Below, piece after piece: positions 1,366 through 60,529 of a DNA stretch of 64,000 bases. The notes under the pieces were generated by a model, which worked only from the letters and a program-made list of their open reading frames with translations, was not told the origin of the DNA and made no database searches. The stretch covers positions 10,649,001-10,713,000 of the forward strand of contig CM065804.1 of assembly GCA_033398695.1 (NCBI GenBank), written 5' to 3'. A program made the position numbers and the translations under genes. Position 1 is the stretch's first letter. Each line of letters begins with the position of its first letter. Origin of the DNA: Orobanche coerulescens (lineage: Eukaryota; Streptophyta; Magnoliopsida; Lamiales; Orobanchaceae).

Positions 1366-2671
1366 TGTTACGAAATTTGATTAACGCAAGTGCACGTTGT
1401 CGTAAGCAAGTAATAAAGTGATAAGTAAGATATCGTTCCCTCGAGGACTGACTCACTAATTATCGATTTATGTGTATTCTAATTTTATTTGAACTATCGA
1501 AATTGGAGTTGCAAGTAATATTTAAAGAAAATTAGTGAAAGGATGAACTAAGAATAAATAGTAAAATCAATTGTCCGAAGAAAGAAGATCAAATAGGGAA
1601 TTAATCTAGGATTGTGAATCCACCTTGGTTTATCCGAATTACTCTTGATTTATATGAATTAACTGATTTTCCAATTTATTGAAGGCAAAGATTACTAAAA
1701 TACTCTACTGCCTCTCCCGAGGTCAATAGAATTTTCTAAGGCGAATAAAACACTCTATTCCTAGGTGAATTAATTCGTCAATAGGCAAAAAGTATGAAAT
1801 CTTCAGAAAGGCCACGTAATTCCTATGTGTATATTCCTATCTCACAAGATAAAACAGTTCTCACCAATTTTCCCTACCAACTCTCCTCTCCCGATTCGAG
1901 TTGCGTAATCAAAACAAATCAATCATAGGCCACATAATTGACAGTAATTAAAACAATTGGGAAAACTCAATAAGAAAGGAAAATATATGTTAATAATGCA
2001 AAATCAAAAGTTAATTCGTCAAAACCTCGGTTTCATCAAAATCCCAGAGTAGGGTTCTAGCACGACATGCTAGAAAATAATACAGAAAGAATTGAGGAAA
2101 TCATAAAAGAAATCAAACACAGTTGAAGAACTTGGATTCCTCCGTTCTCTAGCTTCTGCTTTCTGCTTGGTTGGCGTTTTTCTCCTCTCTTCGATGATGT
2201 CTCTTCAGACCTTTTAATCCCTATTTATAACCATCCTTCGTCTCCAAAACGCGTCCGGAAATTAGGTCGAGAACAGGCTCCAAAAACGGCCCAGAAACGC
2301 GGCGAAAACAGCATTACCGCCCCACGGGCCGTGGCTCAGTAAGTGCGTGCTGCGGCCCCTAATGTCCAGCGCCCTATGCCTGGGCGCAAGTTTTCTTCAT
2401 GAGCCGCGGCTCAGCATCTTCGTGCTGCGGCCCCCGGTACAGTGAGTTCGGCGCCTTGCTGTGCCGTGCGTGTGCCGCGGCCTGGCCTTGGTGTGCCGCG
2501 GCCCCTAACCAAAAATTGTCATTTTCGCCCGTTTTTTCGTCGTTTAGGCTTCCGGACTCCAATTTCCTTCAAACATATAAAGATAGTGCATTAAAAGCTC
2601 ATTTATGCAAATTTAGACTTAACATTGGATATAAAATAATGATAAATAATCGCATAAAAATACATCTAACA
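1366..2671 (-). repeat. 3' LTR of Athila element A
   Basis: It begins TGTTACGAAATTTGATTAAC and ends CATCTAACA, so it has TG/CA termini once oriented. It pairs with 21872-23176 with only scattered differences. On the minus strand U3 starts at 2671. A CCGCGG palindrome array (2328-2500) precedes a TATAAATA box (plus 2222-2229). Several CCGCGG copies here have decayed to CCGTGG or CTGCGG, as expected for methylated CpG. Confidence 0.93.
2328..2500. promoter_or_regulatory. CCGCGG palindrome array in Athila 3' LTR
   Basis: This corresponds to 22832-23006 in the other LTR. Three pairs of GCCGCGGC-type palindromes have partners about 21 bp apart and pairs about 50-54 bp apart. Two or three copies here carry one C-to-T or G-to-A change. 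It sits in U3, about 100 bp upstream of the TATA box on the minus strand. Confidence 0.8.
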
Positions 2672-6160: not shown

Positions 6161-6746
6161 TAGCGTACGCTACGTACTCTACGTAACGTGCGCTAAGTCT
6201 GCCTGTGAACGTACGCAAATGACCAAGTCTAGCGTACGCTAGCCATGTACTGACAATTCTCTCTGATCAGCCGACTGACTCGACTGATAACGTAACATAC
6301 GTTACGTACCAAACGTAGCGTACGTTAACTCATTCCCGATAGCGCATGTTAATATACATATGTTAGCGTGCTGTCACGGGACGGGAGTTCCGAAGCCCGT
6401 GCGGCATCCCAGGGGCCCTCTCACCCCGGGACCAGCCTATCCCACATAGCATGCCAACTGGTTTCGCCCTGCCATGGGCTCATCAGGGAGACGGCATTAG
6501 TCCCCGACCAGTTGTGCCCTACCAGCAACGATCCCCTTCATAGTCAAGTCCTCGACTAGCGACAAGCTCTCCGGACTAAACCGGGTCGGCATGCCTGACT
6601 CGGCCAGACCGATGCATCCGGGCAAACAACGCCTTAACGCTAATGTCGCCCCCTTTTACCCCACTTGTGGCAAGCTAACCAGAAGGCACGCCTCATTTGG
6701 ACGGTCAACACAGACACGACATATCGGGTCGTGACAGTGCGCTAAC
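6161..6746. promoter_or_regulatory. TAGCGTACGCTA palindrome array (downstream array of B LTR)
   Basis: Copies of TAGCGTRCGCTA and relatives (TAACGTGCGCTA, TAGCGTACGTTA) are spaced 23-24 bp, with one gap of about 57 bp. The last copy is split by the 365-bp insertion. The intact version is 13844-14052 in the other LTR. Confidence 0.8.
6372..6736. mobile_element. 365-bp GC-rich insertion (probable solo LTR or TRIM)
   Basis: It is absent from the matching place in the other LTR (around 14047-14050), where an intact TAGCGTGCGCTA is present. It is flanked by a 4-bp duplication GTGC (6368-6371 and 6737-6740). Its ends are inverted, TGTCACG and CGTGACA, with TG/CA termini as in LTRs. It is much more GC-rich than its surroundings and has no coding capacity. 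A MITE is possible, but TG/CA ends favour a small LTR. No 5S-like Cassandra motif is visible. Confidence 0.7.
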
Positions 6747-7465: not shown

Positions 7466-7770
7466 TAGCGCGCGCTAGTCCCTATCCATAGCGTGCGCTA
7501 ACGGCCATACGAAACTTACTGACTTCACTGTACTCAGCGTTTAGCGTGCGCTATCCTCATATCATTAGCGTACGCTACCGCATTGACTTGGCTTTTCCTG
7601 AAAGCCGTCCAGGTTCATCCCGACATGATCCGACCGAAATCCTCAGCCGATCTCACCTACCACCCTGTCTTAATCATGCTGACTACGTATAGCGTGCGCT
7701 AAGGTTCATGAACAGCGTGCGCTACTGATCCAAATTAGCGTACGCTACACTTAGTCGATAGCGTGCGCTA
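7466..7770. promoter_or_regulatory. TAGCGTGCGCTA palindrome array upstream of TATA (B LTR)
   Basis: About eight copies of TAGCGNNCGCTA run from 7466 to 7770. In the matching array of the other LTR the starts are 14770, 14793, 14846, 14870, 14994, about 15017, 15041 and 15064, so neighbours are 23-24 bp apart. Confidence 0.82.
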
Positions 7771-12828: not shown

Positions 12829-15225
12829 TGTAACACCCCGAGATATTCGGAATAATTACAGCGCCGTAAACCCTTAAGTAAGGATTTACAAGGCTAAATA
12901 AAAGAAATGTAAATATAATCCATCAATACCACGGAAATTCAAATTACAAAACCGGTTCCAACTGGTTCAACGAGTTAATTAATACAACCATATCGAAATG
13001 ATATTAATAAGACACGCATACTCGAGTACTGAAATTAAACCAAGAAGACAAATCACAAACAACAACAAACATCACTGAACCCCTTCGTCGTCACATCGGT
13101 ACTATGGCTGTTTCCCCGCTCCTCGGCTAACTGAACATCAAACCAAATGTCCACCCCCGAAGGGGTTAGCAAAACGATGCTAGTACAAGTATCATTTAAA
13201 CAAATCGAATATGCATCAACAATACATAACAAGATACACCACACGGACTTCCGCTACCGGAATCCGACAATGCGAATCCACAAGATTCCATTAACACAGC
13301 ATGGGTATTCCAATGATCCAGCGCCCTCAGCATAGATCCCAAGATGATCCCGTTGGACCAACACGAGGTGGAAAAACCCATCCAATGATCCAACGCCCTC
13401 AGCCTAGATCCCAAGATGATCCCGTCGGACCAACACGAGGTGGACATCCGATCCAGCGCCCTCAGCATAGATCGTACAAAATACACAAACACAACTCATG
13501 CATACATATATGCAAAATCGCTATGTCCATCAACATGAACATACAAACACTGAATAACGAATATCATGACAATTTAACGAAATAAATCCCATGTTCAACA
13601 ACATGAATAAACCACATGTATACTCAAAATATGAACATTAACAAATTACGATACTTGCCTCGAAGATGGCAAGAATGAAACACTCCAATGATCTCAACAC
13701 ACTCGAAGGCCGCCTCCTTCGATCAACGTAGCAAGCTCGAACCTTAACAAAAGAAATGGTATAGAATTCATCTCAAGTCGTACACTACCTATCAATCCGG
13801 TCAACGGACAAAAGCTCTAAATATGTAATCTGCCTGAACTACTTAGCGTACGCTACGTACTCTACGTAACGTGCGCTAAGTCTGCCTGTGAACGTACGCA
13901 AATGACCAAGTCTAGCGTACGCTAGACATATCTTGTGATTCTCTCGATCGGCCCGACTCATTGATAACATAACATACGTTACGTACCAAACGTAGCGTAC
14001 GTTAACTCATTCCCGATAGCGCACGTTAATATACATATGTTAGCGTGCGCTAACCGTGCATGGCAGTTTACTACTGGCAGAAAACTTGATCTAATGGTGA
14101 TGAAACTCATGAATTCTATGGTGATAATACATGTCATACCCGTGCATATCATGCTCATATGGTTTTGTGATCTATAAGGATTAAACGACTAGGAGATACA
14201 AGGTTGCGCATAACCATCACAACACCATAGTTCATCTTGATTTTCAAGGAATATCCTAAGTTCAATCCGTTACATGTCCCAAAACGTATAATTCCTTTTG
14301 TGTAAAGACATAAGAACTTGATAATCTCCAAATACTGGTCACAAACGGTTTTGAAGCTTCATGAATATGCTAGGAGTTCAAACACTAATAGGTTCAATGG
14401 ATTATACGATGAATAAGTACCGAAACATCAAAAATATCCTTCTAACCCATGAGGTTCGACTACTTACGAATTTAACTGACTAGATAATCCCAAAACATGA
14501 TCAAAATGTCCTTCAGAATACTACTAATATTGGTGAAGAATCACTTACCTCAAAGTAGCGAAGAACACGAAGGAACTTGAGGAAATCCAACACTGAGGGC
14601 TTGAACACCAATCTCCAAAGATCTACAATCTTCAAACTCGTGCTAGGAGGATGATATGAGAGGTTGAGGAGGGAGGAAGTAACTCTCTAAGCTCAAAAAT
14701 TCGGATTAGGGAAGTGAAAATATCTGAATAATGAAAAAGTAAGATGTCCTATATATAGGAAATGGTTATTAGCGCGCGCTAGTCCCTATCCATAGCATGT
14801 GCTAACGGCCATACGAAACTTACTGACTTCACTGTACTCAGCGTTTAGCGTGCGCTATCCTCATATCATTAGCGTGCGCTACCGCGTTGACTTGGCTTTT
14901 CCCGAAAGCCGTCCAGGTTCATCCCGACATGATCCGACCGAAATCCTCAGCCGATCTCACCTACCACCCTGTCTTAATCATGCTGACTACGTATAGCGTG
15001 CGCTAAGGTTCATGCACAACGTTGCGCTATGGATCCAAATTAGCGTACGCTACACTTAGTCGATAGCGTGCGCTACATGCGCAGAATCACAATTTAAATC
15101 ACATTCATGAAATCATGCGCTCAACAACACCGGATTATGAAATACGGAGAATAATACTCAGATCAAAATGCAACAATTACAATATCACAAGTTCCAGATA
15201 CATATCAAAAATCTTGGGTATTACA
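12829..15225 (-). repeat. 5' LTR of element B
   Basis: At 2397 bp it is the intact partner of 5144-7920. It keeps both palindrome arrays (14770-15075 upstream of TATA and 13844-14052 downstream), the TATA palindrome at 14747-14760, and a perfect donor-like GAG|GTAAGT at 14549/14548 (minus), where the other LTR has GTAGGT. By eye the two LTRs differ by a few percent. Confidence 0.93.
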
Positions 15226-15230: not shown

Positions 15231-15277
15231 CTAGCCCTAGTACTAACCTTCTTTTTTTAGCCATGGCGAGGTTCCTG
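15231..15277 (-). pseudogene. Start of the Athila env-like ORF with splice-acceptor-like site
   Basis: On the minus strand a pyrimidine-rich TTTATTTTTTCAG ends near 15277, about 12 bases before an ATG at 15264 (M-A-K-K-R-R). The frame runs to the B insertion at 15226-15230. On the far side (5138 downwards) open sequence continues towards the main env-like pieces. An acceptor just before the third ORF would suit expression from a spliced mRNA, as known for some env-class plant elements. The splice site is inferred from sequence only. Confidence 0.5.
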
Positions 15278-15929
15278 AAAAAATAAACACCGGAAATTAC
15301 ACAACTTTGAAGGAAAACTACACCACTCTCGACTTAAGATACGCGGAACGTGAATATAGAGTCGAATGAGCTTGCACCATCGTAAGAGGAAATTTAGGCT
15401 GAGCTTTCAAGTTTAAACATGATGTAAGGGTTGGGGTACAATGTAATCCAATAAATAAATTCGTCGCATACAAATTGAAAACGTTTGGCTCAAAAAATTT
15501 CATTGACGCATTTTATCAAACACCTAGTATGCATGTGTTTAAATGAAGAATAAGAATGATAATGGTTTAATCCAATCCCCAACAATAACAACATCAATCG
15601 ATAGTCATGACAAAACGACAAATAACATCAACAATCCATACATAATCAACAAAAACCATCAACAATTAATCGATAATCACCGTACCAACTCAACTTTGAT
15701 AGAACTAAACATATTCAACATTGAATGAAGAACAATACCTCACTTTTCAAACCATGTAGCAATTAAGATTAAGAATTTAGAGTTACCTTGCTTTGGATTG
15801 AAGAAAGCAAGAAGAAGAAAACTTGAATGTAGGTTGTCCGAGCGCCGCGCAAAGAAGAAGAAAGAAACTTACCTGTCAGTATCGGCCGATCCAATTATAA
15901 AGGAATCCTGGGCGGTTGATCTTCGCAAC
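15278..15929 (-). other. Athila spacer with TATA-like and donor-like sites
   Basis: No protein-coding content is convincing. On the minus strand a TTTATAATTGG box (plus 15891-15902) lies about 35 bp past the palindrome array. A perfect donor-like CAG|GTAAGT follows at 15873/15872, then a T/C-rich stretch. With the acceptor at 15277 this would define an intron of about 0.6 kb. TATA and donor are only about 25 bp apart, so a transcript starting from this TATA might not include the donor. Confidence 0.45.
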
Positions 15930-15934
15930 AGGGG

Positions 15935-16263
15935 CCGCGACACAGCTTAAGTGAGCCACGGCCCAGAGTACAGCCTGCCTGGGCATTTTTGTGATTTCGC
16001 TGTGTGCCGCGGCTTAATGTACGCGTGCCGCGACTCGTAGTGTAAGTGTGCCGCGGCTCATCTGGTCCGTGATGCGGCACGGAGTACAGTTTCCTGGGCG
16101 TTCATGGGGCGTTTTGCGTGCCGCGGCTCAGTATAATTATGCCGCCGCTCCGGGGTCGAGTGTGCCGCGGCTCAGTAAGGTTGTACCGCGACACATAGTA
16201 CAGGAAGGTTGGCACTTTTTGTTCGACTTGTGTGTGCCGCGGCTCATTTTGGTTGTGCCGCGG
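15935..16263. promoter_or_regulatory. Internal CCGCGG palindrome array of Athila element A
   Basis: Twelve CCGCGG-type sites start at about 15935, 15956, 16007, 16028, 16051, 16073, 16121, 16142, 16165, 16186, 16237 and 16258. Neighbours are 21-23 bp apart and clusters 48-51 bp. The flanks match the LTR array (GTGCCGCGGCTCAGTA), but the sequence on either side does not resemble the LTR, so this is not simply a solo LTR. Confidence 0.75.
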
Positions 16264-16265
16264 AC

Positions 16266-16524
16266 CATTGCTAAATTTTTTCCTGGGGAGATTCCTGCAC
16301 AAAATTTTCAAAGGAAAAACACCTAGAACGTGAGAGATAAGCATATCCAAGCAAAATGACGAAAAAAATAGACTCCTAAAATGCATGAAAACACTAAAAA
16401 ATAAAAATCTACAACTAATACTCAGGTTGCCTCCCAAGAAGCGCTAAGTTTATTTTCTTCAACCGGACTTTTTTAGCATTCATCCGACGGTGGATAATAC
16501 GACGCTCATCTTCTGCACGTACGT
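16266..16524 (-). other. Athila post-integrase spacer
   Basis: On the minus strand this follows the integrase stop and contains GCGCTTCTTGGGAGGCAACC, a phrase typical of the region just 3' of pol in Athila elements. No ORF of note. Confidence 0.6.
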
Positions 16525-21871: not shown

Positions 21872-23176
21872 TGTTACGAAATTTGATTAACGCAAGTGCA
21901 CGTTGTCGCAAGCAAGTAATAAAGTGATAAGTAAGATATCGTTCCCTCGAGGACTGACTCACAAATTACCGATTTATGCGTATTCTAATTTTATTTAAAC
22001 TATCGAAATTGGTGTTTCAAGTAATATTTAAAGGAAATTAGTGAAAGGATGAACTAAGAATAAATAGTAAAATCGATTGTCCGAAGAAAGAAGATCAAAT
22101 AGGGAATTAATCTAGGATTGTGAATCCACCTTGGTTTATCCTAATTACTCTTGATTTATATGAATTAACTGATTTCCCAATTATTGAAGGTGGAGATTGC
22201 TAAAATACTCTACTGCATCTCCCGAGGTCAATAGAATTTTCTAAGGCGAATAAAACACTCTATTCCTAGGTGAATTAATTCGTCAATAGGCAAAAAGTAT
22301 GAAATCTTCAGAAAGGCCACATAATTCCTATGTGTATATTCCTATCTCACAAGATAAAACGGTTCTCACCAATTTTTCCTACCAACTCTCCTCTCCCGAT
22401 TCGAGTTGCGTAATCAAAACAAATCAATCATAGGCCACATAATTGACAGTAATTAAAACAATTGGGAAAACTCAATAAGAAAGGGAAATATATGTTAATA
22501 ATGCAAAATCAAAAGTTAATTCGTCAAAACCTCAGTTTCATCAAAATCCTAGAGTAGGGTTCTAGCCCGACATTCTAGAAAATAATACAGAAAGAATTGA
22601 GGAAATCATAAAAGAAATCAAACACAGTTGAAGAACTTGGATTCCTCCGTTCTCTAGCTTCTGCTTTCTACTTGGTTGGCGTTTTTCTCCTCTCTTCGAT
22701 GATGTCTCTTCAGACCTTTTAATCCCTATTTATAACCATCCTTCGTCTCCAAAACGCGTCCGGGAATTAGGTCGAGAACAGGCTCCAAAAACGGCCCAGA
22801 AACGCGGCAAAAATAGCATTACCGCCCCGCAGGCCGCGGCTCAGTAAGTGCATGCCGCGGCCCCTAATGTCCAGCGCCCTATGCCTGGGCGCAAGTTTTC
22901 TTCATGGGCCGCGGCTCAGCATCTTCGTGCCGCGGCTCCCGGTACAGTGAGTTCGGCGCCTTGCTGTGCCGTGCGTGTGCCGCGGCCTGGCCTTGGTATG
23001 CCGCGGCCCCTGACCAAAAATTGTCGTTTTCGCCCGTTTTTTCGTCGTTTAGGCTTCTGGACTCCAATTTCCTTCAAACATATAAAGATAGTGCATTAAA
23101 AGCTCATTTATGTAAATTTAGACTTAACATTGGATATAAAAGAATGATAAATATTCACATAAAAATACATCTAACA
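21872..23176 (-). repeat. 5' LTR of Athila element A
   Basis: The partner of 1366-2671. It carries the better preserved CCGCGG array (22832-23006) and a minus-strand TATAAATA (plus 22727-22734). A purine-rich leader with GAGAGGAGAAAAACG follows. Confidence 0.93.
22832..23006. promoter_or_regulatory. CCGCGG palindrome array in Athila 5' LTR
   Basis: CCGCGG cores start at 22834, 22855, 22909, 22930, 22980 and 23001. These are three pairs with 21 bp inside each pair and 54 or 50 bp between pairs. Flanks repeat as GGCCGCGGCTCAG and ATGCCGCGGCCCC. Confidence 0.85.
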
Positions 23177-24805: not shown

Positions 24806-27309
24806 TGTCATATTCGGGGGTAATTTTTTTTCGTGTTACTATTGTGTTGTACGTATTCATTTGGAATTGTACAAATATTGTGTATATCATTCGTGTGTGT
24901 TGAGGTGCATTGGATTGTATTTCGTTCATTCCGGTTGAGAATTGGTGGATCAACTTGGATGTCCACTATGTTGAGCTAACGTACGTTAACTTGTGTGCTT
25001 AACGTACGTTAGGCTTTAGGCATTACGTACGTTATGGCATTAATGTTACGTACGTAATGAGTGGTAGGTGGAGGGAACCTTCCTCGGACTCGACTTTCGG
25101 ACGGTGGGTCCCGGGCATCTTTGATCCGATCGACTATTGCAGTCAACGGATCCTTACGTACGTTAAGATGTGAGCTCTATGTACGTAATCCAGGTAGCTT
25201 GTTAACGTACGTAAATGGTTCTTGTTTACGTACGTTAAGGTCTTCGTATTTTTGGTCAGTTAGTTCTGGATTTAGCATTACGTACGTTAATGTTTTGGCA
25301 TAGCGTACGTAATGGTCCTTACGTACGTTATGCTTATTGTATAGCGTACGTAATGTGTTTTTCAGATTATATATCTTGGTTTCATATTTCATTTCTTCAC
25401 AAACCAAAATCATTTTTCTCTCTCTAGAATTGTCCGTCTGGACTTGTTCTTGATATTTAGTCTCTTCCAACACGATTTTGATCATCCTAGCTTGGATTGG
25501 AGCTTGAAGTTGGAAGCTTGTTGGTGCTCCTTTGGTGTTTGGAGGGTTCTTCTTGTTCTTCATTGGTAAGTTCCCTTAATCTCTTGTTCTTAAAGTGATT
25601 TTCGAATTTGGTGATGTAGTTGTTGTTGTTTTCTTCGGGTATTGATTGATTATTGGAGTATATCATGATTCTTGATGAGTTTTTATAACTTGTGATGAAG
25701 AACATGATGATTTTGTCTTGAGGGGGAGTTATTTTTGATGTTTTAGAATGTTTGGAGGTTATAATCATGTCTAGGAAGGATTATGTTAACATTGTTATAT
25801 GATTAACATAGTTTTGATATGATTATTGTTGTTGGTTGTGGTTTGAGGGATTATAACCATTTTTGTAAGGAATTGTGATGAATTATCATAATTTTGAAAT
25901 GGTTTAGTGGACCTTGTTGTTTAATCCGAATTCATGATGAATTGGTGATGGATTATTGTTTAGACATCATGTTGGTTGAGATGATGATGTTCTTGGGGTC
26001 TTGATGATGATATTAGTGGTATTATCATTTTGGAGATGTTTTTTTTTGATGATTGTTCTTAAGTGATTCTTGTTGAATTGTTTTCACAAGTGTTAAGAGC
26101 GTTTGATCATGTCGATCATTGAGGTGTTGGAGGATCTTGGAATTCATAGTTGAGAACTATGATATTCGTTGGTAGAGTTTAACCAATTCGGGGTTGAATC
26201 GGGTTTGTCCTTGGTGTTGTTTTCTATTGATTTGTGTTATTGAATGAATCGTTTTTCATTCATGGTTGTTCGAGTGTTTGTGATCGTCGGAAGGCGTCGT
26301 TCGTCGTTTCGTGCCAGGACGTTGATCGTGGAAGGACTTTCTCACCTTCGGTTTGAGGCAAGTTTTATACTTGTACTGGTCAATGAGATTAATGTTATCA
26401 TATATGTGTATGAATGTGTTGTATCATTTCGAGACATAGTCTCTTTGTGGTTTGTTGATATCAGGGGATTGTTTTATACGATACCTTTCGGAAAATTATG
26501 CCAAATGTTGTTATTATCCGATAAAAGCCGTTCAGAGCTTTGAGATACTAGTTGTTGATGTTATTGTTCAGACCAATGTGATATTGTGGCAACTTTGGAT
26601 GAGGGGGCTTTCAGGCCTTTGTAATGTCTTAGTATTTCTATTGGAGCCATCGGGCATTGTGATTCGTATCTATTGCAGCTTTGGCTTGGTTTAGCTTCGG
26701 GTAATGCATTGTTGTGTTCTGTATTGATGATTCGCCGTTGGGCGCTTATGTTCTAACCTGTTGAGCAGGTATTGATCGTATGCCGTGGGCATAGTGTTTC
26801 ACGAATGCTCGATTCTTACTTTGGTTTGTGAGCATCTCGTACTACCACTGTTGTACTGTTCATTCTGCCTTTGGATGCATATCATGTTGACATGTATTTG
26901 ATATTCATTATCTGGATCAATGACCCCGTGGGGCGGAACATGTTTTCATGTTTTAGGTGCTTGTGAGGAGAGAGTTGAGACACAGGGGTATGACGATGGC
27001 GACGAGGCATTCGAGCGATACTAGTTAGAGATATTTTGGTGTTCATGTCGGTCAGACAGTTTAGACAGTTATTGTCATTTTGTATTATCCGAGCAAGGCT
27101 CGTGGATGTTGTTGTATTTTATTTTGGCCATGTAGGCCCACTATTGTCGTTGAAATTCCATATCGGAATATTATGTTGGATGTCCAATGTAGGGATTGTG
27201 AATCCCCTTTTGGTCAGTTTGTTGTATTTTAGTCATGTCCGCCTGGTGGGATCTCCTGGTGTGGGGTCCACAGCACTGTAATGACCCAATGGGATTTGGG
27301 GATGTTACA
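24806..27309 (+). repeat. 5' LTR of element C (with internal deletion)
   Basis: At 2504 bp it begins TGTCATATTCGGGGG (TGTAATATCC in the partner). Order: ACGTACGT array 24977-25353, TATATAT at 25368-25374, donor-like TTG|GTAAGT at 25565/25566, TTTGAG|GCAAGT at 26357/26358, TTTTAG acceptor-like ending 26956. About 1.27 kb present in the 3' LTR (31522-32790) is missing here between GTTATTGT (26565) and TCAGACCA. Confidence 0.92.
24977..25353. promoter_or_regulatory. TTACGTACGTAA palindrome array, element C 5' LTR
   Basis: Twelve copies of T-W-A-C-G-T-A-C-G-T-W-A start at 24977, 25000, 25023, 25046, 25154, 25177, 25203, 25226, 25278, 25301, 25319 and 25342. Most steps are 23 bp. The partner array is at 29934-30311. 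Confidence 0.87.
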
Positions 27310-29764: not shown

Positions 29765-31726
29765 TGTAATATCCGGGGGTAATTTTTTCGTGTTACTGTT
29801 GTGTTGTACGTATTCATTTGGAATTGTACAAATGTTGTGTATATCATTCGTGTGTGTTAAGGTGCGTTGGATTGGATTTCGTTCATTCCGGTTGAGAATT
29901 GGTGGATCAATTTGGATGTCCACTTTGTTGAGCTAACGTACGTTAGCTTGTGCGCCTAATGTACGTTAGTCTTTAGGCATTACGTAAGTTATGGCATTCA
30001 TGCTACGTACGTAATGAGTGGTAGGTGGAGGGAACCTTCCTCGGACTCGACTTTCGAACGGTGTGTCCTGAGCATCTTTGATCCGATCGACTATTGCAGT
30101 TAACGGATCCTTACGTACGTTAAGAGGTGAGCTCTACGTACGTAATCCAGGTAGCTTGTTAACATACGTAAATGGTTCTTGTTTACGTACGTTAAGGTCT
30201 TCGTATTTTTGGTCAGTTAGTTCTGGATTTATCATTACGTACGTTAATGTTTTGGCATAGCGTACGTAATGGTCCTTACGTACGTTATGCTTGTTGTATA
30301 AAGTACGTAATGTGTTTGTCAGATTATATATCTTGGTTTCGTATTTCATTTCTTCACGAACCGAAATCATTTTTCTCTCCCTAGAATTGTCTTCTGGACT
30401 TGTTCTTGATATTTAGTCTCTTCCAACACGATTTTGATCATCCTAGCTTGGATTGGAGCTTGAAGTTGGAAGCTTGTTGATGCTCCTTTGGTGTTTGGAG
30501 GGTTCTTCTTGTTCTTCATTGGTAAGTTCCCTTAATCTCTTGTTCTTCAAGTGATTTTCGAGTTTGGTGATGTAGTTGTTGTTGTTTTCTTCGGGTATTG
30601 ATTGATTGTTGGACTATATCATGATTCTTGATGAGTTTTTATAACTTGTGATGAAGAACATGATGATTTTGTCTTGAGGGGGAGTTGTTTTTGATGTTTT
30701 AGAATGTTTGGAGGTTATAATCATGTCTAGGAAGGATTATGTTAACATTGTTATATGATTAACATAGTTTTGATATGATTATTGTTGTTGGTTGTGGTTT
30801 GAGGGATTATAACCATTTTTGTAAGGAATTATGATGAATTATCATAATTTTGAAATGGTTTAGTGGACCTTGTTGTTTAATCCGAATTCATGATGAATTG
30901 GTGATGGATTATTGTTTAGACATCATGTTGGTTGAGATGATGATGTTCTTGGGGTCTTGATGATGATATTAGTGGTATTATCATTTTGGAGATGTTTGTT
31001 TTGATGATTGTTCTTAAGTGATTCTTGTTGAATTGTTTTCACAAGTGTTAAGAATGTTTGATCATGTCGATCATTGAGGTGTTGGAGGATGTTGGAATTC
31101 ATAGTTGAGAACTATGATATTCGTTGGTAGAGTTTAACCAATTCGGGGTTGAATCGGGTTTGTCCTGGTGTTGTTTTCTATTGATTTTGTGTTATTGAAT
31201 GAATCTTTTTTCATTCAAGGTTGTTCGAGTGTTTGTGATCGTTGGAAGGCGTCGTTCATAGTTTCGTGCCAGGACGTTGATCGTGGAAGGACTTTCTTGC
31301 CTTTGGTTTGAGGCAAGTTTTATACTTGTACTGGTCAATGAGATTAATGTTATCATATATGTGTATGAATGTGTTGTATCATTTCGAGACATAGTCTCTT
31401 CGTGGTTTGTTGATATAAGGATTTTTATACAATACCTTTTGGAAAATTATGCCAAATGTTGTCATTATCCGATAAAAGCCGTTCAAGGCTTTGAGATACT
31501 CATTGTTGATGTTATTGTCGATAAACGGTTCGCGGTATCGATGTATCGGTTGTTGTTGTTGATATTGATGTCGGTTTAAGATATCGTTGGGATCGTTGTT
31601 ATCAAATTGGTATTGTTTCTATTGGTGTTGTATTGGCCGATTGAAGGCATTTGACATATTCATTTATCATCTTCATTTCAGTGGTCGGTTTAAGGCACTG
31701 GGACATCTATTCTAATTGAGTCATTG

Positions 31727-39836: not shown

Positions 39837-40151
39837 TAACGTACGCTACGAGTGATGTGTAATGTACGTTATGTGTTACGCTTAGCGTACGTAAGTCCGT
39901 ATTGTTACGTACGTAACGGTGTTCAGGAAATCGGGCAGTGTGCTCTGCCAGCCCCTTACTTACGCTACGAGTTTGAGGTTGTGTGCGACAACGTTGACCA
40001 TTACGTACGTAAGAGCTTTCTCATAACGTACGTAATTGCCTTTGTATTCTTCGACAATAGGTTCTGCCCATTCGTTACTTATGTAAGCCGGGAAGTCTTA
40101 CGTACGTTAATCAGCTAACATACGTTAGATATTCGAGGCTAACATACGTAA
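39837..40151. promoter_or_regulatory. TAACGTACGTTA palindrome array, LTR G
   Basis: Octamer cores (ACGTACGT and variants) start at 39839, 39862, 39885, 39907, about 39958, 40003, 40026, 40077, 40100, 40118 and 40142. Steps are mainly 22-24 bp, with larger gaps of 45-51. Confidence 0.82.
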
Positions 40152-40156: not shown

Positions 40157-40176
40157 CCTGGGTTTATATACCCAGG
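40157..40176 (+). promoter_or_regulatory. TATA box in a 7-bp-arm inverted repeat, LTR G
   Basis: CCTGGGT (40157-40163) and ACCCAGG (40170-40176) are exact inverted repeats separated by TTATAT, so the TATA box is the centre of the palindrome. Confidence 0.75.
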
Positions 40177-42784: not shown

Positions 42785-42806
42785 CTGCCAGTTTATATAC
42801 TGGCAG
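42785..42806 (-). promoter_or_regulatory. TATA box in an 8-bp-arm inverted repeat, element D
   Basis: CTGCCAGT (42785-42792) and ACTGGCAG (42799-42806) are exact inverted repeats around the minus-strand TATATAAA box. The other LTR (59659-59680) has one arm mismatch. Confidence 0.8.
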
Positions 42807-42810
42807 GTGT

Positions 42811-43139
42811 TACGGCCGTAACACACCCCACATACGGCCGTAACACACCCCACATACGGCCGTAACATAGGAACATTACGGCCGTAACTTGACTCTCTTA
42901 CGGCCGTAACTGGCCTCTGGAGAGAAACTGGGCAAATTTGACGAATGACACATACGGCCGTATCAAGAACACCATTACGGTTGTATCTATACTTACGGCC
43001 GTAACTCAAACATGATACGCCCGTAACTCAGGACTGGACCAGGAGGCAAGAAATGAAGCCTTGTTACGGCCGTATGAAGGAAGCTTACGGCTGTAACTCT
43101 CGATTATTATGGCCGTAACATATACGGCTTACGGCCGTA
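42811..43139. promoter_or_regulatory. TTACGGCCGTAA palindrome array, element D 3' LTR
   Basis: Thirteen TACGGCCGTA-type copies start at 42811, 42833, 42855, 42877, 42899, 42953, 42976, 42994, 43016, 43065, 43086, 43108 and 43130. The first five are spaced exactly 22 bp. The partner array is at 59685-59991. Confidence 0.9.
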
Positions 43140-43676
43140 ACATGGCCTGTGACAGCAGGCCATAGTCTGAAGCACTGCCCGACGAGGAGATGATCGCAAA
43201 GAGAAAAAAATAACAAGGTGTATCCACGACCAACGGATACACTCACCACGGATTTGAGTCAGAAACCAAAACGTTACCATGAAGCGTGATTCCAAATACC
43301 CGAAGGCTTAGGAACAACAAGGATAACAAGAGTACCCTAAACTTAGGGAAATTACGAAACGGCCCAAACGTCCAAAAATCGCGATACAACGTCGGATTAA
43401 CAAACCGAAACTCACAACACGAACAACTCAACTATGCGAACTCGTGAAACCAAAGAAATTACAAAAGCGAACGGGTTCTACGAGAAACGAACGTCCATGC
43501 CATAATACATGACATAAAACAGAATAATATCAAAACATCACCAAGATCGTCCCAAATGGAGAAACTCCAAGAATAAAATAGATTCAAAATGTCGACATGG
43601 TTACAAGCGAACTACTAAAAATGAAAATACACCAAAACGGGAATATCGAAAAAAGAAGAAAAAAGCGGATATTACA

Positions 43677-43689: not shown

Positions 43690-43711
43690 CAAACAAGTTT
43701 TGTCCCGAAAC

Positions 43712-48303: not shown

Positions 48304-48526
48304 ACTGGTGTTAAGAGATAACAGAAGTATATTGATGATGAGTAAGGGAGGAAAAAGCAACTACGATTCGAAAAGCGGAAATACAATGCAAGAAAACAAA
48401 AGACCGAATAAGAAAACTTACGAGCACCGGAAGTATCGAGATGCTGGCAGCGATGTGACAATATGCAAGACAAAACACAACTAGACCCAAATAACCGACA
48501 AGCTTAGGTATCCATAAACCTAGTGC

Positions 48527-48538
48527 GCTCTGATACCA
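48527..48538 (-). other. Primer binding site of element D (initiator-Met)
   Basis: Minus strand TGGTATCAGAGC, the exact plant initiator-Met-type site, lies five bases after the LTR. Confidence 0.9.
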
Positions 48539-48543
48539 TTTTC

Positions 48544-49205
48544 TGTAACACCCCCGAGATATTCGGAGTATATTACAGCGCTGTGGACCTCTACATGGGA
48601 CCCACCAGGCTAAAACAAGGAAAACACTACTCGACTAACCAACCCAGTTAGCAAAGACACACATTTAAATAATACAACCCATAAAGATACGCCCGGAGCA
48701 ACCGGCGTAATAAACATCAACCGACAATATAACAATTTGAGTTAATACAAAACGTAGTTCGAGATGAAAAGCCTAAGTACTCGTGAGTACAATCTATATG
48801 TTTATAAAAGTGGGAAACAACCAAATCGAAGTAGACGACAGAAATAAGAAGACCCAAATGCACATGTCAACGACCCTGGCCAACATCCTCGTACTGTCCC
48901 AGCGCTCGCTCGTCCGGAAGAACATTATCTGAAATCCATAACAAGAATTTCCCCAAAACGGGTCCCCAAAGGGGTTTGCAATTACGCTAGTACAAGTAAT
49001 CAAGGCAAATCAATCGCTTACACATTTCATAGTACCAATGCACCAAATCATTTCAAAAACCAAAAACTAGACATGTCTTTTCCGGAAACAAACAGTCAAA
49101 CAAATTGCCTAGGACCGGGACGAAGCCACAAATCCTACCTGAGGCCTCTAAGGACCCTCCCGAGCTGGCCACTCATAAAACAAATCACGCACAGGCATCG
49201 CCTAG
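48544..49205 (-). repeat. 5' LTR of element D, portion before element E
   Basis: The R/U5 end of the LTR, matching 41401-42060. It is cut at CCTAG (49201-49205) by element E. The GTACTCGCGAGTAC palindrome is mutated here to GTACTCGTGAGTAC. Confidence 0.9.
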
Positions 49206-51800
49206 TGTAATACCCGGTTGAATTTCATTCATTTTTATTCAATATTAATCAGTCAGTAATTATCATTCAGTAAACTTCACTCATTATTAATCACTCATCA
49301 TTCGTGATTCATTCATTTCGTTCACTGTTGGTATGTTGTAATCGTATATCAGTTACCAATAGTCTTTTCATCTCCATTTATAGATCGAGATGGGAATATT
49401 ATCATTTTCATCGGGATTGGTAGTCTTGTACTGGGAGTATCATTTTTGGCATGTGTTGGACCTGTTCACTTTCACATTCGTATGATTTGTCGGATCATTC
49501 ATCAGTCGTAGCGAGGAATCGGAGTTATCGGATTTTCACCTAGTCCAGCATTGAGTTACGGCCGTAAGGATTGTAGGTTACGGCCGTAACAAGGGTCCGT
49601 TGATGTCAGGCTATTTTGGATGAACGGGACTTACGGCCGTAAGGTTTCGGAATACGGCCGTAAGTTGAGCAGGTACGGCCGTAAGGTTTGGCCGATTACG
49701 GCCGTACGTGTCGAGCAGGGTGCCCAGGCGTTTTTGGCCGAAGGCGAGTTACGGCTGTAAGGGTTGCGGCATACGGCCGTAAGTCAAGGGAGATACGGCC
49801 GTAAGGCTTGGCCGGATACGGCCGTACGTTACAGGCAGGGTACCTGGTCATTTTCGACGAATCGGGCTTACGCCCGTAAGTTTGGCCGGATACGGCCGTA
49901 TCATCCGAGTTACGCCCGTAAGGTGTGCGGGTACGGCCGTAAGGATGTCGGCAGATGTTTTAGACGAGGGCGAGTTACGCCCGTAAGTCAGGGCGGATAC
50001 GGCCGTAAGCGTCGCCGATGTTTTCGACGGCCGAGTTACGGCCGCATTTGAGTTGGCGATTCTGACCGTAAGGCCGTTGACCTGGGATGTTACGGCCGTA
50101 TGAAGGCCGTGTTACGGCCGTAATTTCCGGCAGTATATAAGGATCCGGTCGGGACTTTTTCTTCATTTTCAGCCTTTTCTTCCATCTTGTCCGAGAGAGA
50201 GAGCTTGAGGGAGGGATTTTCCTTCATCAATCACTGGAGTACTTGATTTTCTTCATCTTCATTCGTTTGGGAAGCTTGGATACTCGATTTAACTCGTGTT
50301 CATCGGATCGAAGTGGTTGGATCTTCAAGAGGTAATTTATTCAACATATTGGATTTCGATTTTGTGTTAAAATATGATGTTTTGGACGTTATAATCATGT
50401 TATATGAAGGGATATGAATATGATTATGAGTTTGTATAAAGATTCATTGGATTATTGAGGGATTATTCAAGAACACTTTGAATATCGATTTGGATTTGGG
50501 AGTTTTCGATTAATTGTTGTTATAATCACGATTTTGGATATTCATAACGGATTATTGATCGTATTGAAGATGTTTTGTTGGTTTGAAACACTTCTTGGGG
50601 ATTTGATGTTGGTATTTTTGAAGTTTGGTTATGAACAATCGTAGTTGGCCACAAAGTGTTCGATATAATGCCCCAATGAACTTGGTTTAGTCGTTTTGAT
50701 GCCTTGAGTTCATTATAATTGTGTTTGATTCGTTTATTGAGCGGATTGTTGGTATTTGTGTTTATCAAGGTTGTTCGAGCGACCGACACTTCATTTAGGA
50801 CGTTTGTTCGTGGAAGGACATTCTTCATCGGTATTGTGTAAGTTAATTCTTACTCGGTTAAAAGGATATTCATTCCTTTCGTTGTTGTTCATTCATAATC
50901 ATAATTCATTCATAAGGTACTAACCGTTCAAACTTGTAATTGTCACTTAATTACTTCATTCACGAGGAACGACGGTTCCAATCATTTCATTGAGCTGTCA
51001 TTCATTTCACCATCATTTTATCTTGGTGAGTCATTATTCATTTCGTTGTCACTTTTGTTATATCGTGGCATTCCGGGTCATGCTGGCGTGCCGGTTGGTA
51101 TGTGTAGGATTTTCATCTCGGGCACATTATAGTCGTGTGTTGGTTGGTGGCCTCACATTGGACTATGCACACGGGTTGATGGCTTCGTGAGACTGATTAG
51201 GTACAAGACCACATGTGTATTCGATCGATACTCGTTAGTGGCTTGTGCACGGACACATTTCCATCCCGGATGTAGTGTGGTGCCATTCCTTTGAGCCGTA
51301 CTGTTAGTTGATTCATATAGCATGTTTGATTGTGTATGTTTCGACAGGATATTTCATAACTTCAAATATATCGTGATTGTGTATTTTCAACCCTTGAGGA
51401 TTGTTGTTCTGTGTAACTGACCCCGGCTGGGGATTTTGTTTTTCAGGTCATGGCAAGGCAAAAGCACGGGAATAGCATGTTGACGGCGAGGAGTCCCAGT
51501 GATACTAGTAGGGAGCTCCGATCTTTCAGTTATTCATGTTGTTGTCCTTTAATTTCCGCTGCATACTTTCATTTGGATACTCCGTTTCATTCAGTGTTGT
51601 GTATTTTATCTTCATATAAAATATACTAGTATTCGGTATTGTCCTGGTGGGTTGTACTTAAACTCCTCATCGGAGTATTTGGTAATATAATGTGGTTCGG
51701 TACTACGATTATATTATTTAATTCATCATTTTCATTCGCCTGGTGGGTCCCAGTCGGGGATTCACGGCACTGTAATATCCGCCTAGTTTGGGGTGTTACA
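49206..51800 (+). repeat. 5' LTR of element E
   Basis: 2595 bp, from TGTAATACCCGG to TTGGGGTGTTACA. Order: ACGGCCGT array 49557-50122, TATATAA 50134-50140, donor-like AGAG|GTAATT at 50331/50332, TTTATCAAG|G at 50769/50770, GTAAGT donor-like at 50837/50838, CTGAC at 51417-51421, CCCC/GGGG hairpin, TTTTTCAG ending 51446. Confidence 0.94.
49557..50122. promoter_or_regulatory. TTACGGCCGTAA palindrome array, element E 5' LTR
   Basis: About twenty copies, the longest array here. Starts: 49557, 49579; 49632, 49653, 49674, 49697; 49750, 49772, 49794, 49817; 49869, 49891, 49911, 49932; 49976, 49998; 50037, 50061; 50091, 50113. Steps inside clusters are 20-24 bp and cluster gaps often 52-53. A higher-order unit of about 118 bp is visible. 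The partner is at 56677-57245. Confidence 0.92.
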
Positions 51801-51804
51801 GAGT

Positions 51805-51817
51805 TGGTATCGGAGCG
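51805..51817 (+). other. Primer binding site of element E
   Basis: TGGTATCGGAGCG lies four bases after the LTR, an initiator-Met-type site with one change. Confidence 0.85.
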
Positions 51818-52334
51818 TGGTTTTGAATACTACCTTCCGAGTCATGTCTCATTTGAAATCATCGTCATCAAACTAGTATCATTGGACTTTCGCATCACGT
51901 GTGACCTGTGCAAATGCCGAGCCAATCAGACCGAAAGAACTGTAAGATTTCTAACGCCATGGTATAATTTCTGGCAATAGTCATTCATTCATCATTCATC
52001 AATTAACAATCCTCAAACATCATCATTCATTGTGATTAGGACGATCATGTTAACTCATTAATCACTTAATTCATTTCATTACTCAGTTAATGACCAGGAC
52101 GATCATGTTAACTCATTAATTACTCAATTCATTTCATTACTCAGTTGTCGATCTGGATGATCATATTATTAATCTTGTTAAGTTATTCAAGATAATTATT
52201 TCAAGAATTTCATCAAATAACCATGTCACTTCAGTAAATCATTCATGTAATCACTAAGTTAGAGCATGTATACTCATTTTCATCATCTCATGACATAATC
52301 ATAACGTGATAATCATGCGGGAAATATAATCATT

Positions 52335-53690: not shown

Positions 53691-53729
53691 TTACGATGTA
53701 TTTCCAGACGAGTTATCCGGTCGCCTTCA

Positions 53730-56290: not shown

Positions 56291-56306
56291 TTTCGAGGAC
56301 GAAACT

Positions 56307-56325: not shown

Positions 56326-58923
56326 TGTAATACCCGGTTGAATTTCATTCATTTTTATTCAATATTAATCAGTCAGTAATTATCATTCAGTAAACTTCAC
56401 TCATTATTAATCACTCATCATTCGTGATTCATTCATTTCGTTCACTGTTGGTATGTTGTAATCGTATATCAGTTACCGATCGTCTTTTCATCTCCATTTA
56501 TAGATCGAGACGGGAATATTATCATTTTCATCGGGATTGGTAGTCTTGTACTGGGAGTATCATTTTTGGCATGTGTTGGATCTGTTCACTTTTACATTCG
56601 TATGATTTGTCGGATCATTCATCAGTCGTAGCGAGGAATCGGAGTTATCGGATTTTCACCTAGTCCAGCATTGAGTTACGGCCGTAAGGATTGTAGGTTA
56701 CGGCCGTAACAAGGGTTCGTTGATGTCAGGCTATTTTGGACGAACGGGACTTACGGCCGTAAGGTTTCGGAATACGGCCGTAAGTTGAGCAGGTACGGCC
56801 GTAAGGTTTGGCCGATTATGGCCGTACGTGTCGAGCAGGGTGCCCAGGCGTTTTTGGCCGAAGGCGAGTTACGGCCGTAAGGGTTGCGGCATACGGCCGT
56901 AAGTCGAGGGAGATACGGCCGTAAGGCTTGGACGGATACGGCCGTACGTTACAGGCAGGGTACCTGGTCATTTTCGACGAATCGGGCTTACGCCCATAAG
57001 TTTGGCCGGATACATCCGTATCATCCGAGTTACGCCCGTAAGGTGTGCGGGTACGGCCGTAAGGATGTCGGCAGATGTTTTAGACGAGGGCGAGTTACGC
57101 CCGTAAGTCAGGGCGGATACGGCCGTAAGGCTGTCGGCAGGTTTTTGGACAAAGCCGAGTTACGGCCGTACGAGTTGGCCGGTTACGACCGTAAGGCCCT
57201 TGACCTGGGATGTTACGGCCGTATGAAGGCCGTGTTACGGCCGTAACTTCCGGCAATATATAAGGATCCGGCCGGGACTTTTTCTTCATTTTCACCCTTT
57301 TCTTCCATCTTGTCCGAGAGAGAGAGCTTGAGGGAGGGATTTTCCTTCATCAATCACTGGAGTACTTGATTTTCTTCATCTTCATTCGTTTGGGAAGCTT
57401 GGATACTCGATTTAACTCGTTTTCATCGGATCGAAGTGGTTGGATCTTCAAGAGGTAATTTCTTCATCATCTTGGATTTCGATTTTGTGTTGAAATATGA
57501 TGTTTTGGACGTTATAATCATGTTATATGAAGGGATATGAATATGATTATGAGTTTGTATAAAGATTCATTGGATTATTGAGGGATTATTCAAGAACACT
57601 TTGAATATCGAGTTGGATTTGGGAGTTTTCGATTAATTGTTGTTATAATCACGATTTTGGATATTCATAACGGATTATTGATCGTATTGAAGATGTTTTG
57701 TTGGTTTGAAACACTTCTTGGGGATTTGATGTTGGTATTTTTGAAGTTTGGTTATGAACAATCGTAGTTGGCCACAAAGTGTTCGATATAATGCCCCAAT
57801 GAACTTGGTTTAGTCGTTTTGACGCCTTGAGTTCATTATAATCGTGTTTGATTCGTTTATTGAGTGGATTGTTGGTATTTGTGTTATTCAAGGTTGTTCG
57901 AGCGACCGACACTTCATTTAGGACGTTTGTTCGTGGAAGGACATTCTTCATCGGTATTGTGTAAGTTAATTCTTACTCGGTTAAAAGGATATTCATTCCT
58001 TTCGTTGTTGTTCATTCATAATCATAATTCATTCATAAGGTACTAACCGTTCAAACTTGTAATTGTCACTTAATTACTTCATTCACGAGGAACGACGGTT
58101 CCAATCATTTCATTGAGCTGTCATTCATTTCACCATCATTTCATCTTGGTGAGTCATTATTCATTTCGTTGTCACTTTTGTTATATCGTGGCATTCCGGG
58201 TCATACTGGCGTGCCGGTTGGTATGTGTAGGATTTTCATGTCGGGCACATTATAGTCGTGTGTTGGTTGGTGGCCTCACATTGGACTGTGCACACGGGTT
58301 GATGGCTTCGTGAGACTGATTAGGTACAAGACCACATGTGTATTCGATCGATACTCGTTGGTGGCTTGTGCACGGACACATTTCCATCCCGGACGTAATG
58401 TGGCGCCATTCCTTTGAGCCGTACTGTTAGTTGATTCATATAGCATGTTTGATTGCGTATGTTTCGACAGGATATTTTATAACTTCAGATATATCATGAT
58501 TGTGTATTTTCAACCCTTGAGGATTATTGTTCTGTGTAACTGACCCCGGCTGGGGATTTTGTTTTTCAGGTCATGGCAAGGCAAAAGCACGGGAATAGCA
58601 TGTTGACGGCGAGGAGTCCCAGTGATACTAGTAGGGGGCCCCGATCTTTCAGTTATTCATGTTGTTGTCCTTTAATTTCCGCTGCAGACTTTCATTTGGA
58701 TACTCCGTTTCATTCAGTGTTGTGTATTTTCTCTTCATATAAAATATACTAGTATTCGGTATTGTCCTGGTGTGTTGTACTTAAACTCCTCATCGGAGTA
58801 TTTGGTAATATAATGTGGTTCGGTACTACGATTATATTATTTAATTCATCATTTTCATTCGCCTGGTGGGTCCCAGTCGGGGATTCACGGCACTGTAATA
58901 TCCGCCTAGTTTGGGGTGCTACA
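56326..58923 (+). repeat. 3' LTR of element E
   Basis: 2598 bp, nearly identical to 49206-51800 by eye. Array at 56677-57245, TATATAA 57257-57263, CTGAC 58540-58544, acceptor-like end at 58569. It differs mainly in a few array copies, for example near 57125-57180 where the E 5' LTR has a shorter unit. Confidence 0.94.
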
Positions 58924-58928
58924 CCTAG

Positions 58929-60529
58929 GACCAGGACGCCACCATGAATCCCACCCGAGGCCTCTAAGGACCCTCCCGAGTTGGCTAGCGAAACAAACTC
59001 ATGAATCCAGAGTAAAGTGATAGATTCCCCCGAGGCCCCGTCGGACCCTCCCAGGGTGAGCAAAGCACACACAATATACATTACCATTCCATGTTAAGCA
59101 TAAAGGTTTCCAAAAATACTTGCCTTGAATAATAGACGACGCAACGAACGGAAGGAAAAACACCGACGACCGTTAGGAGCCGATAATCACGAACCTAACG
59201 ATGCGAAGAACACAATCACAACCAATTCTAAATGAATACGGAATTGAAAAACACCCGAAAACCTGCCTACGATTTATGTGTATTCGTATCAAAACAACGA
59301 CGAGGGCGGATCGCGACCAAACCCTCTCGATTATGCAAATATCACGAAATACACCATGAGTTCGTAGGAGAACAAGAACACTAACGAGATTAATCATAAT
59401 CATCAAGGATTAATCAACAACACGGAGCAAAACGAACAATATAACCGAAATCCCCCAAATACCCCAAGGTAGGGTTATAAGAGATTTTACCTTGATTCGA
59501 AGATGAACGATGGATGATTAGTGATAGGTGGATGATATGATACTTGAATATGCCCTTACAATGGAGTTTTGATCAAAATCGGACGAACCCTAGCCTCTGT
59601 CGTCGCTCCCGTCGCGAAGAGAAAAGAGAGATGTGAGAAATGAAGAAAAACTGAGCCGCCGCCAGTTTATATACTGGCAGGTGTTACGGCCGTAACACAC
59701 CCCACATACGGCCGTAACATAGGAACATTACGGCCGTAACTTGACACTCTTACGGCCGTAACTGGCTTCTGGAGAGAAACTGGGCAAATTTGACGAATGA
59801 CACATACGGCCGTATCAAGAACACCATTACGTCCGTATCTATACTTACGACCGTAACTCAAACATGATACGCCCGTAACTCAGGACTGGACCAGGAGGCA
59901 AGAAACGAAGCCTTGTTACGGCCGTATGAAACAAGTTTACGGACGTAACTCTCGATTATTACGGCCATAACATATACGACTTACGGCCGTAACATGGCCT
60001 GTGACAGCAGGCCATAGTCTGAAGCACTGCCCGACGAGGAGATGATCGGAAAGAGAAAAAAAAATAACAAGGTGTATCCACGACCAACGGATACACTCAC
60101 CACGGATTTGAGTCAGAAACCAAAACGTTACGATGAAGCGTGATTCCAAATACCCGAAGGCTCAGGAACAACAAGGATAACAAGAGCACCCTAAACTTAG
60201 GGAAATTACGAAACGGCTCAAACGTCCAAAAATCGCGATACAACGTCGGATTAACAAACCGAAACTCACAACACGAACAACTCAACTATGCGAACTCGTG
60301 AAACCAAAGAAATTACAAAAGCGAACGGGTTCTACGAGAAACGAACGTCCATGTCATAATACATGACATAAAACAGAATAATATCAAAACATCACCAAGA
60401 TCGTCCCGAATGGAGAAACTCCAAGAATAAAATAGATTCAAAATGTCGACATGGTTACAAGCGAGCTACTAAAATGAAAATACACCAAAACGGGAATATC
60501 GAAAAAAGAAGAAAAATGCGGATATTACA
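58929..60529 (-). repeat. 5' LTR of element D, portion after element E
   Basis: The rest of the D LTR (U3 and R), matching about 42053-43676. It has array 59685-59991, TATA palindrome 59659-59680, and ends GGATATTACA. Confidence 0.92.

What the first reader, a model, noticed from the sequence alone, without database searches (positions are those of the whole stretch)
49557..50122. Helically phased palindrome arrays in the U3 of every gypsy LTR in the window
In elements A, B, C, D and E and LTR G (F more weakly) I measured start positions of short CG-bearing palindromes in the LTRs. Neighbours are 21 (A), 23-24 (B), 23 (C), 22 (D), 21-23 (E) and 22-24 bp (G) apart, with recurrent 50-54 bp gaps between clusters. 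These are about two and five helical turns. Palindrome sequence differs by family but spacing does not, across two distant lineages. This suggests repeated binding of dimeric proteins on one face of DNA, or a nucleosome or methylation signal, kept by selection on spacing. I do not know of a description of this.
Basis: seen in the sequence. Interest (0 to 1): 0.88.

Follow-up and report, generated by a model that had tools for sequence, protein, structure and literature searches.

The report
Phased palindrome arrays in retrotransposon promoters
Promoters of common retrotransposons in this plant genome carry rows of short mirror-image DNA boxes set about two turns of the double helix apart, probably docking sites for paired proteins that switch the elements on; similar boxes are known in another element group, but I found no description of this regular spacing.

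Summary
Window plus 20 random 10-kb stretches of this 3.6-Gb genome hold 40 arrays (shuffles: 0) of two box types: TWRCG-NN-CGYWA (chromovirus-like elements) and GNGCCGCGGCNC (Athila-like). Over 18 sequence families, 89 of 150 neighbouring boxes lie 20-24 bp apart (random placement 20 +/- 4); only 5 lie 25-41 apart (random 46). Spacers are nearly random, so one tandem 22-mer does not explain it, though multi-box units have duplicated. In the first type longer gaps follow a 10.7-10.9 bp period, and TATA starts 21-26 bp after the last box start in 9 of 11 arrays with a TATA. TTACGGCCGTAA occurs 184,551 times genome-wide, its mirror-order palindrome 83 times. Athila carries a second array, with its own TATA, before the ORF downstream of pol.

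Best reading: an upstream activating array bound cooperatively by dimeric, probably host, proteins; binding is inferred. Such palindrome clusters upstream of TATA and env are published for Ty1/copia Sireviruses; two Ty3/gypsy lineages, the quantified spacing and TATA on the lattice appear new. One-face phasing is weaker than claimed (23 bp is not two turns), and Athila's long gaps are not shown to be phased.

The parts
49556..50123 (+). E, U3 of first LTR: array of 17 boxes (<=1 mismatch), mostly TTACGGCCGTAA, steps 20-24 and gaps 39-54
50134..50139 (+). E: TATATA, 22 bp after the start of the last box
56676..57246 (+). E, U3 of second LTR: array of 17 boxes
57257..57262 (+). E second LTR: TATATA
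42810..43140 (-). D, U3 of 3' LTR: array of 11 boxes, TTACGGCCGTAA type
42794..42799 (-). D: TATATA inside the inverted repeat CTGCCAGT-ATATAA-ACTGGCAG
59684..59992 (-). D, U3 of 5' LTR: array of 11 boxes
39837..40151 (+). C LTR: array of 10 boxes, TWACGTACGTWA type
40163..40168 (+). C: TATA (TTTATA) inside the inverted repeat CCTGGGT-TTATAT-ACCCAGG
24977..25353 (+). B first LTR: array of 11 boxes, TWACGTACGTWA type
25368..25373 (+). B first LTR: TATATA
29934..30310 (+). B second LTR: array of 12 boxes
14770..15075 (-). A 5' LTR: first array, 6 boxes of TAGCGNNCGCTA type
14747..14760 (-). A 5' LTR: TATA within the palindrome TCCTATATATAGGA
13844..14052 (-). A 5' LTR: second array, 8 boxes, about 700 bp downstream of TATA; no TATA within 60 bp after it
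7466..7770 (-). A 3' LTR: first array, 8 boxes
6161..6351 (-). A 3' LTR: second array, 7 boxes, cut by an insertion
22831..23009 (-). Athila-like element, 5' LTR: 6 boxes GNGCCGCGGCNC at 21, 54, 21, 50, 21
2326..2504 (-). Athila-like element, 3' LTR: 6 boxes, same spacing; TTATAAATA follows about 95 bp further on
15932..16266 (-). Athila-like element, internal array of 12 boxes between pol and the downstream ORF
15896..15901 (-). Athila-like element: TATA (TTTATA) 30 bp after the internal array
15262..15264 (-). ATG after a TTTCAG acceptor-like signal; start of the ORF downstream of the internal array, interrupted by element A at 15225
   Evidence: same order in L012 and L019

Best explanation
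The arrays are upstream activating regions of retrotransposon promoters. Each 12-bp box is a two-fold symmetric site, two half-sites round a loosely specified centre, for a dimeric DNA-binding protein, most likely encoded by the host. Boxes stand in short ladders at about two helical turns, ladders are often separated by about five turns, and in the chromovirus type the ladder runs into the TATA box, so that neighbouring dimers and the TATA complex can bind cooperatively. Athila uses the same module twice, in the LTR and before its downstream ORF. Shown by computation: boxes, spacing, near-random spacers, independent half-sites, position relative to TATA, abundance. Inferred: that a protein binds, that it activates, that it is host-encoded, and cooperativity.
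For: Spacing against random placement and motif-blind; phase period 10.7-10.9 bp in the chromovirus type; spacers nearly random; halves of a box agree no more than shuffled halves of the same array, 0.74 against 0.72, P 0.25; TATA 21-26 bp after the last box start in 9 of 11 arrays that have one; Athila arrays before two different promoters, LTR and internal; an ENV ORF promoter is reported for Arabidopsis Athila6A (PMC4977677, passages); box CpGs lost less often than long-gap CpGs among E copies, 11 of 287 against 11 of 105; single box 184,551 times against 83. The retroelement ORFs scanned gave only retroelement domains and PF20167; no binding protein was identified.
Against: No binding or expression data. 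No factor is named. 4 of 15 oriented chromovirus-type arrays have no TATA within 60 bp, among them the second arrays of A and L026; orientation of the other 11 was read from the TATA itself. Steps of 23 bp do not keep one face. Indels per kb among E copies: short spacers 5.5, boxes 3.4, long gaps 10.8, flank 3.0, so short spacers are not protected relative to flank. LTR pairs of A, B and D are too few and mixed on CpG loss (B boxes 4 of 46 letters, flank 1 of 15; D boxes 1 of 42, flank 0 of 76; A boxes 0 of 26, flank 1 of 12). Env-like genes are elsewhere said to be driven from the 5' LTR or by splicing (PMC7264820, PMC2829016, passages).
Confidence: 0.6

Rival explanations
1. The arrays act in RNA: transcribed in the 3' LTR they fold into long hairpins, used by the element or seized by the host as a source of small RNAs and methylation, as argued for maize Sireviruses.
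For: Strong predicted folding, z -10.1 for the E array and -9.1 for the B array; Sirevirus palindromes are described as small-RNA hotspots (PMC5311732 and PMC10760457, passages).
Against: No pairing signal between neighbouring boxes or between halves of a box beyond array composition; hairpins do not need 20-24-bp steps, a phase near 10.8 bp or a fixed place before TATA. Any repeated palindrome folds well.
Confidence: 0.15
2. Neutral product of duplication and gene-conversion-like turnover: boxes and multi-box units multiply because repeats recombine, and spacing is inherited, not selected.
For: 118-bp offset in E; tandem units of 22, 41, 45, 65, 66 and 119 bp within arrays; slight excess of spacer similarity; short-spacer indels not depleted.
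Against: Near-random spacers with preserved boxes, few distances at 25-41, phase of the long gaps, and a similar step in a second, unrelated motif.
Confidence: 0.1
3. Anti-silencing platform, like VANDAL elements: an element-encoded protein binds the boxes and strips silent chromatin.
For: Motif repeated in noncoding DNA, different motifs in different lineages, concerted change of box centre between C and D, whose U5 is alike.
Against: No candidate binding protein found in the ORFs examined; not searched exhaustively. Within the chromovirus type the motif is shared between families.
Confidence: 0.08
4. Nucleosome-positioning or methylation signal.
For: Period near 10.8 bp; CpG observed/expected 1.17-2.01 in eight of nine window arrays measured (0.96 in the Athila LTR) against 0.8-1.17 in the five LTR remainders.
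Against: Sequence specificity is far beyond a dinucleotide signal, and boxes sit next to TATA.
Confidence: 0.05

Closest known systems
Sirevirus repeated motif (RM) boxes, Ty1/copia (Bousios et al. 2010, PMC2829016; sections 9, 10, 19 and passages read)
   Same: Palindromic CG-bearing boxes in high copy in the LTR upstream of TATA, forming CpG-rich stretches, with further clusters before the envelope gene; flanks diverge while boxes are kept.
   Different: Ty3/gypsy here, in two lineages; core CGG-CCG only in the GC-centred boxes; step, gap and TATA lattice measured; the paper calls the motif Sirevirus-specific and gives no spacing rule in the parts I saw.
Palindromic structures of maize Sirevirus LTRs (Bousios et al. 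2016, Genome Res; not held, known only as cited in PMC5311732 and PMC10760457)
   Same: Palindrome clusters in the LTR cis-region with strong predicted folding.
   Different: Other element group; there linked to small RNAs, not tested here.
VANC-target repeats of VANDAL elements (PMC10398659, passages)
   Same: Short family-specific motifs repeated in noncoding regions and changing in concert.
   Different: DNA transposon with an element-encoded binding protein; 'palindrom' and 'spacing' do not occur in that text.
Athila6A ENV ORF promoter, Arabidopsis (PMC4977677, passages)
   Same: An internal promoter before the ORF downstream of pol in Athila.
   Different: No palindrome array is mentioned in the passages I saw.

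Membership tests
Sirevirus RM array | Palindromic box in at least 8 copies in the LTR | tested here: met
   Met by D, E, B, C and one LTR of A (8-17 boxes); not by the Athila LTR (6) or A's other LTR (6 in array 1)
Sirevirus RM array | Core CGG-CCG signature | tested here: not met
   Only GC-centred boxes (TTACGGCCGTAA) have it; TWACGTACGTWA and TAGCGNNCGCTA do not; Athila boxes have CCGCGG
Sirevirus RM array | Cluster upstream of TATA in U3 | tested here: met
   11 of 15 oriented chromovirus-type arrays, 4 without TATA in 60 bp
Sirevirus RM array | Extra cluster before the envelope gene | tested here: met
   Athila internal array in window, L012 and L019; L014 disrupted. That the ORF (PF20167 in L012) is envelope-like is not shown
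Sirevirus RM array | Element belongs to Ty1/copia Sireviruses | tested here: not met
   Gypsy-type domain set and order; SH3_Tf2-1 and a sub-cutoff Chromo match in D
VANC-type anti-silencing target | Element-encoded protein that binds the motif | not testable with these tools
   Ten ORFs scanned with Pfam gave retroelement domains only; binding needs an experiment
Simple tandem repeat (22-bp minisatellite) | Adjacent units alike over their whole length | tested here: not met
   Spacer identity near shuffled; local exceptions in D and E
Lineage names Tekay and Athila | Placement in a reverse-transcriptase tree | not tested

The most novel reading that the evidence does not exclude
Retrotransposons of unrelated lineages have converged on one promoter grammar: ladders of dimer sites at about two helical turns, gaps near five turns, and the TATA box as the last rung, in some families inside a dyad of its own, while the box letters differ between lineages. 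This would be an enhanceosome-like code kept by selection on geometry and copied in very large numbers in one genome.
Probability: 0.35. Interest if true: 0.8.

Novelty: new variant of a known kind. Interest (0 to 1): 0.62.

Why it matters
It carries a feature that was called specific to copia Sireviruses over to gypsy elements of two lineages that are common in this genome, and adds a quantitative spacing rule that makes the open question of what drives these promoters directly testable by shifting a rung half a turn. If a factor binds, it would be a shared activator of a large part of the genome's retrotransposons.

Tried and rejected
Relatives outside this genome: the chromovirus RT query found no relative in viral contigs. 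Box-pair patterns gave 0, 2 and 0 stretches there; the two hold single box pairs in contigs of 57% and 72% GC and no array. So nothing is known here about other species.

Literature for the box letters: 38 papers, 20 listed, none about retroelements by title. 'Helical turn' with LTR and palindromic: 0 papers. One search failed on a short term. PMC6911290 (passages) concerns palindromes at insertion targets, a different matter.

A general second box inside the long gaps: dyads reached P 0.05 in 2 of 29 gaps, so it is not claimed. TATA inside an inverted repeat: P 0.001 in 3 of 11 arrays tested (D, L022, C), over 0.05 in the other 8, combined 2e-5; a side result. Helical phasing of Athila long gaps: not shown. 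Other repeated 8-bp palindromes were a 62-64-bp repeat in L013, TAGATCTA in L014 and AATTAATT in L016.

Rows dropped: L001-L008 left out of the census because they were chosen by similarity; arrays under 4 boxes not counted; one representative per family; 15 of 26 chromovirus-type arrays oriented, the rest being second copies or unplaced; Athila gaps not tested for dyads. L016 passes the array rule but its steps (15, 46, 27) make it doubtful. Genome counts of GTGCCGCGGCAC, TTACGTACGTAA and AATCGGCCGATT did not complete.

Full report
What is there. The window is a nest of Ty3/gypsy elements in a 3.65-Gb genome: an outer Athila-like element on the minus strand with LTRs 1365-2671 and 21871-23176; A (minus, LTRs 5142-7920 and 12827-15225); B (plus, LTRs 24806-27309 and 29765-33547); a truncated C with an LTR from about 39690 to 41345; D (minus, 41401-60530); and E (plus, 49206-58923) inserted in the 5' LTR of D. 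Pfam finds gypsy-type pol domains; D has SH3_Tf2-1 and a Chromo match below the curated cut-off.

Boxes. U3 of A-E holds rows of 12-bp near-palindromes: TAGCG-YR-CGCTA (A), TWACG-TA-CGTWA (B, C), TTACG-GC-CGTAA (D, E). All fit TWRCG-NN-CGYWA. Over 119 boxes of the family representatives of this type the centre is loose (TA 36, CA 24, TG 20, GC 19, CG 10, others 10), while the outer letters and both CGs hold; that is partly built in, since boxes were called with at most 1 mismatch. Athila boxes follow GNGCCGCGGCNC, called with at most 2.

More than chance. With one rule (at least 4 boxes, neighbours at most 160 bp apart) the window and 20 random 10-kb stretches give 40 arrays, 26 of the first type and 14 of the second; 5 Markov-1 shuffles give none. 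Sixteen of the 20 random stretches hold at least one, L016 doubtful. The 40 fall into 18 blastn families. One representative each gives 150 neighbour distances: 89 at 20-24 (null 20.4 +/- 4.0), 21 at 49-54 (7.7 +/- 2.7), 5 at 25-41 (46.4 +/- 5.7). Without assuming a motif, CG-bearing 8-bp palindromes of the random 200 kb give 20 pairs at 20-24 and 16 at 49-54 against 1.2 and 1.8 in shuffles; removing the two box types leaves 3 and 1. Genome-wide TTACGGCCGTAA occurs 184,551 times and its mirror-order palindrome 83 times; two such boxes 14-44 bp apart occur 60,854 times, control 0. Of the 50 places listed (the first on one contig, related copies included) the spacing is 22 in 24, 23 in 8, 19-21 in 7, 30 in 6 and 42-44 in 5.

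Step and phase. The step depends on the box: mean 21.0 for Athila (n 23), 21.8 for GC-centred (n 12), 22.95 for TAGCG type (n 40), 22.0 for TWA type (n 8, two of them 18). Gaps of 38 bp and more in the chromovirus type are phased: R 0.58 at 10.9 bp, reached in 0 of 2000 jitters (n 34); best in-phase period 10.7 for these gaps and 10.9 for all distances. Athila gaps are not shown to be phased (n 17, P 0.06; cosine 0.05 at 10.5). One-face geometry is therefore approximate, and helical phasing is shown for one lineage.

TATA. I oriented 15 of the 26 chromovirus-type arrays; 11 have a TATA within 60 bp, starting 21-26 bp after the start of the last box in 9 and 31 bp in 2; 4 have none. For the 11 the orientation itself was read from the TATA. 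In D, L022 and C the TATA lies inside an inverted repeat (P 0.001 each; 11 arrays tested, combined 2e-5).

Not one tandem unit. Mean spacer identity is 37% against 33% shuffled (70 spacers) and 40% against 31% (19 spacers). Multi-box duplication does occur. C and D LTRs are 70-94% alike from about 40385 on, and 24-53% in the U3 array and start region before it, yet both keep the ladder, with different box centres.

Protein site or RNA stem. The two halves of a box agree no more than shuffled halves of the same array (0.74 against 0.72, P 0.25), and neighbouring boxes show no pairing signal. The RNA would still fold strongly (z -10.1 and -9.1), so a silencing role stays open. Among 7 E copies compared with E5, CpGs are lost in 11 of 287 box, 11 of 105 long-gap, 16 of 124 flank and 3 of 70 short-spacer cases, after dropping 5 sites lost in most copies (4 long-gap, 1 flank). 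Six of the 7 copies were picked by array similarity. Indels per kb were 3.4 in boxes, 5.5 in short spacers, 10.8 in long gaps and 3.0 in flanks, so short spacers are not protected relative to flank. The LTR pairs of A, B and D are too small to decide and are mixed.

A second promoter in Athila. An array lies at 15932-16266 after pol; 30 bp on comes TTTATAA, then a leader with GTAAG-like donors and TTTCAG before an ATG. L012 has the same order, TATA 29 bp on and a TTTTAG before the ATG, leading to a 241-aa ORF matching PF20167. L019 has TATA 31 bp on and a broken ORF with a similar start. In L014 no ORF of 90 aa follows. An ENV ORF promoter is reported for Athila6A (PMC4977677, passages), while other authors put env-like expression down to the 5' LTR promoter or splicing (PMC7264820, PMC2829016, passages).

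How it most likely works. Two-fold sites with independent halves, a step near two turns, a ladder ending at TATA and re-use before a second promoter fit an activating array bound by dimers. That a protein binds, and which, is inferred. I hold this at 0.6.

Known or new. Sirevirus RM boxes (PMC2829016; sections 9, 10 and 19 and passages) are the same kind of thing and were called Sirevirus-specific. I saw no spacing statement. Searches for a gypsy counterpart listed none by title or in the passages opened; their lists were partly cut, and many subscription papers are not held. I file this as a new variant of that kind, not as a member, since two defining features, the CGG-CCG core and the copia lineage, are not met.

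Noticed in passing
window 6372-6736: About 365 bp present in one LTR of A and absent from the other, beginning TGTCACGACCC and ending GTGACA; it interrupts the second box array.
   Followed up: no
window 31721-32726: A 79-bp tandem repeat (7 copies) and a 36-bp tandem repeat (5.2 copies) in the second LTR of B only, so its two LTRs differ by about 1.3 kb.
   Followed up: no
window 39690-43677: C and D LTRs look like a mosaic: U5 70-94% alike, U3 and start region 24-53% alike, as if the promoter module had been exchanged or evolves much faster.
   Followed up: partly
L018 7182-7694 and L023 4967-5501: Arrays that mix TA-centred and GC-centred boxes, perhaps a switch of box type in progress.
   Followed up: no
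window 53481-53688 and 52038-52168: 56-bp and 58-bp tandem repeats inside the internal region of E.
   Followed up: no
L013 5438-5765: Palindromes CTCCGGAG and GAGGCCTC repeated at 62-64 bp, unlike the two box types.
   Followed up: no
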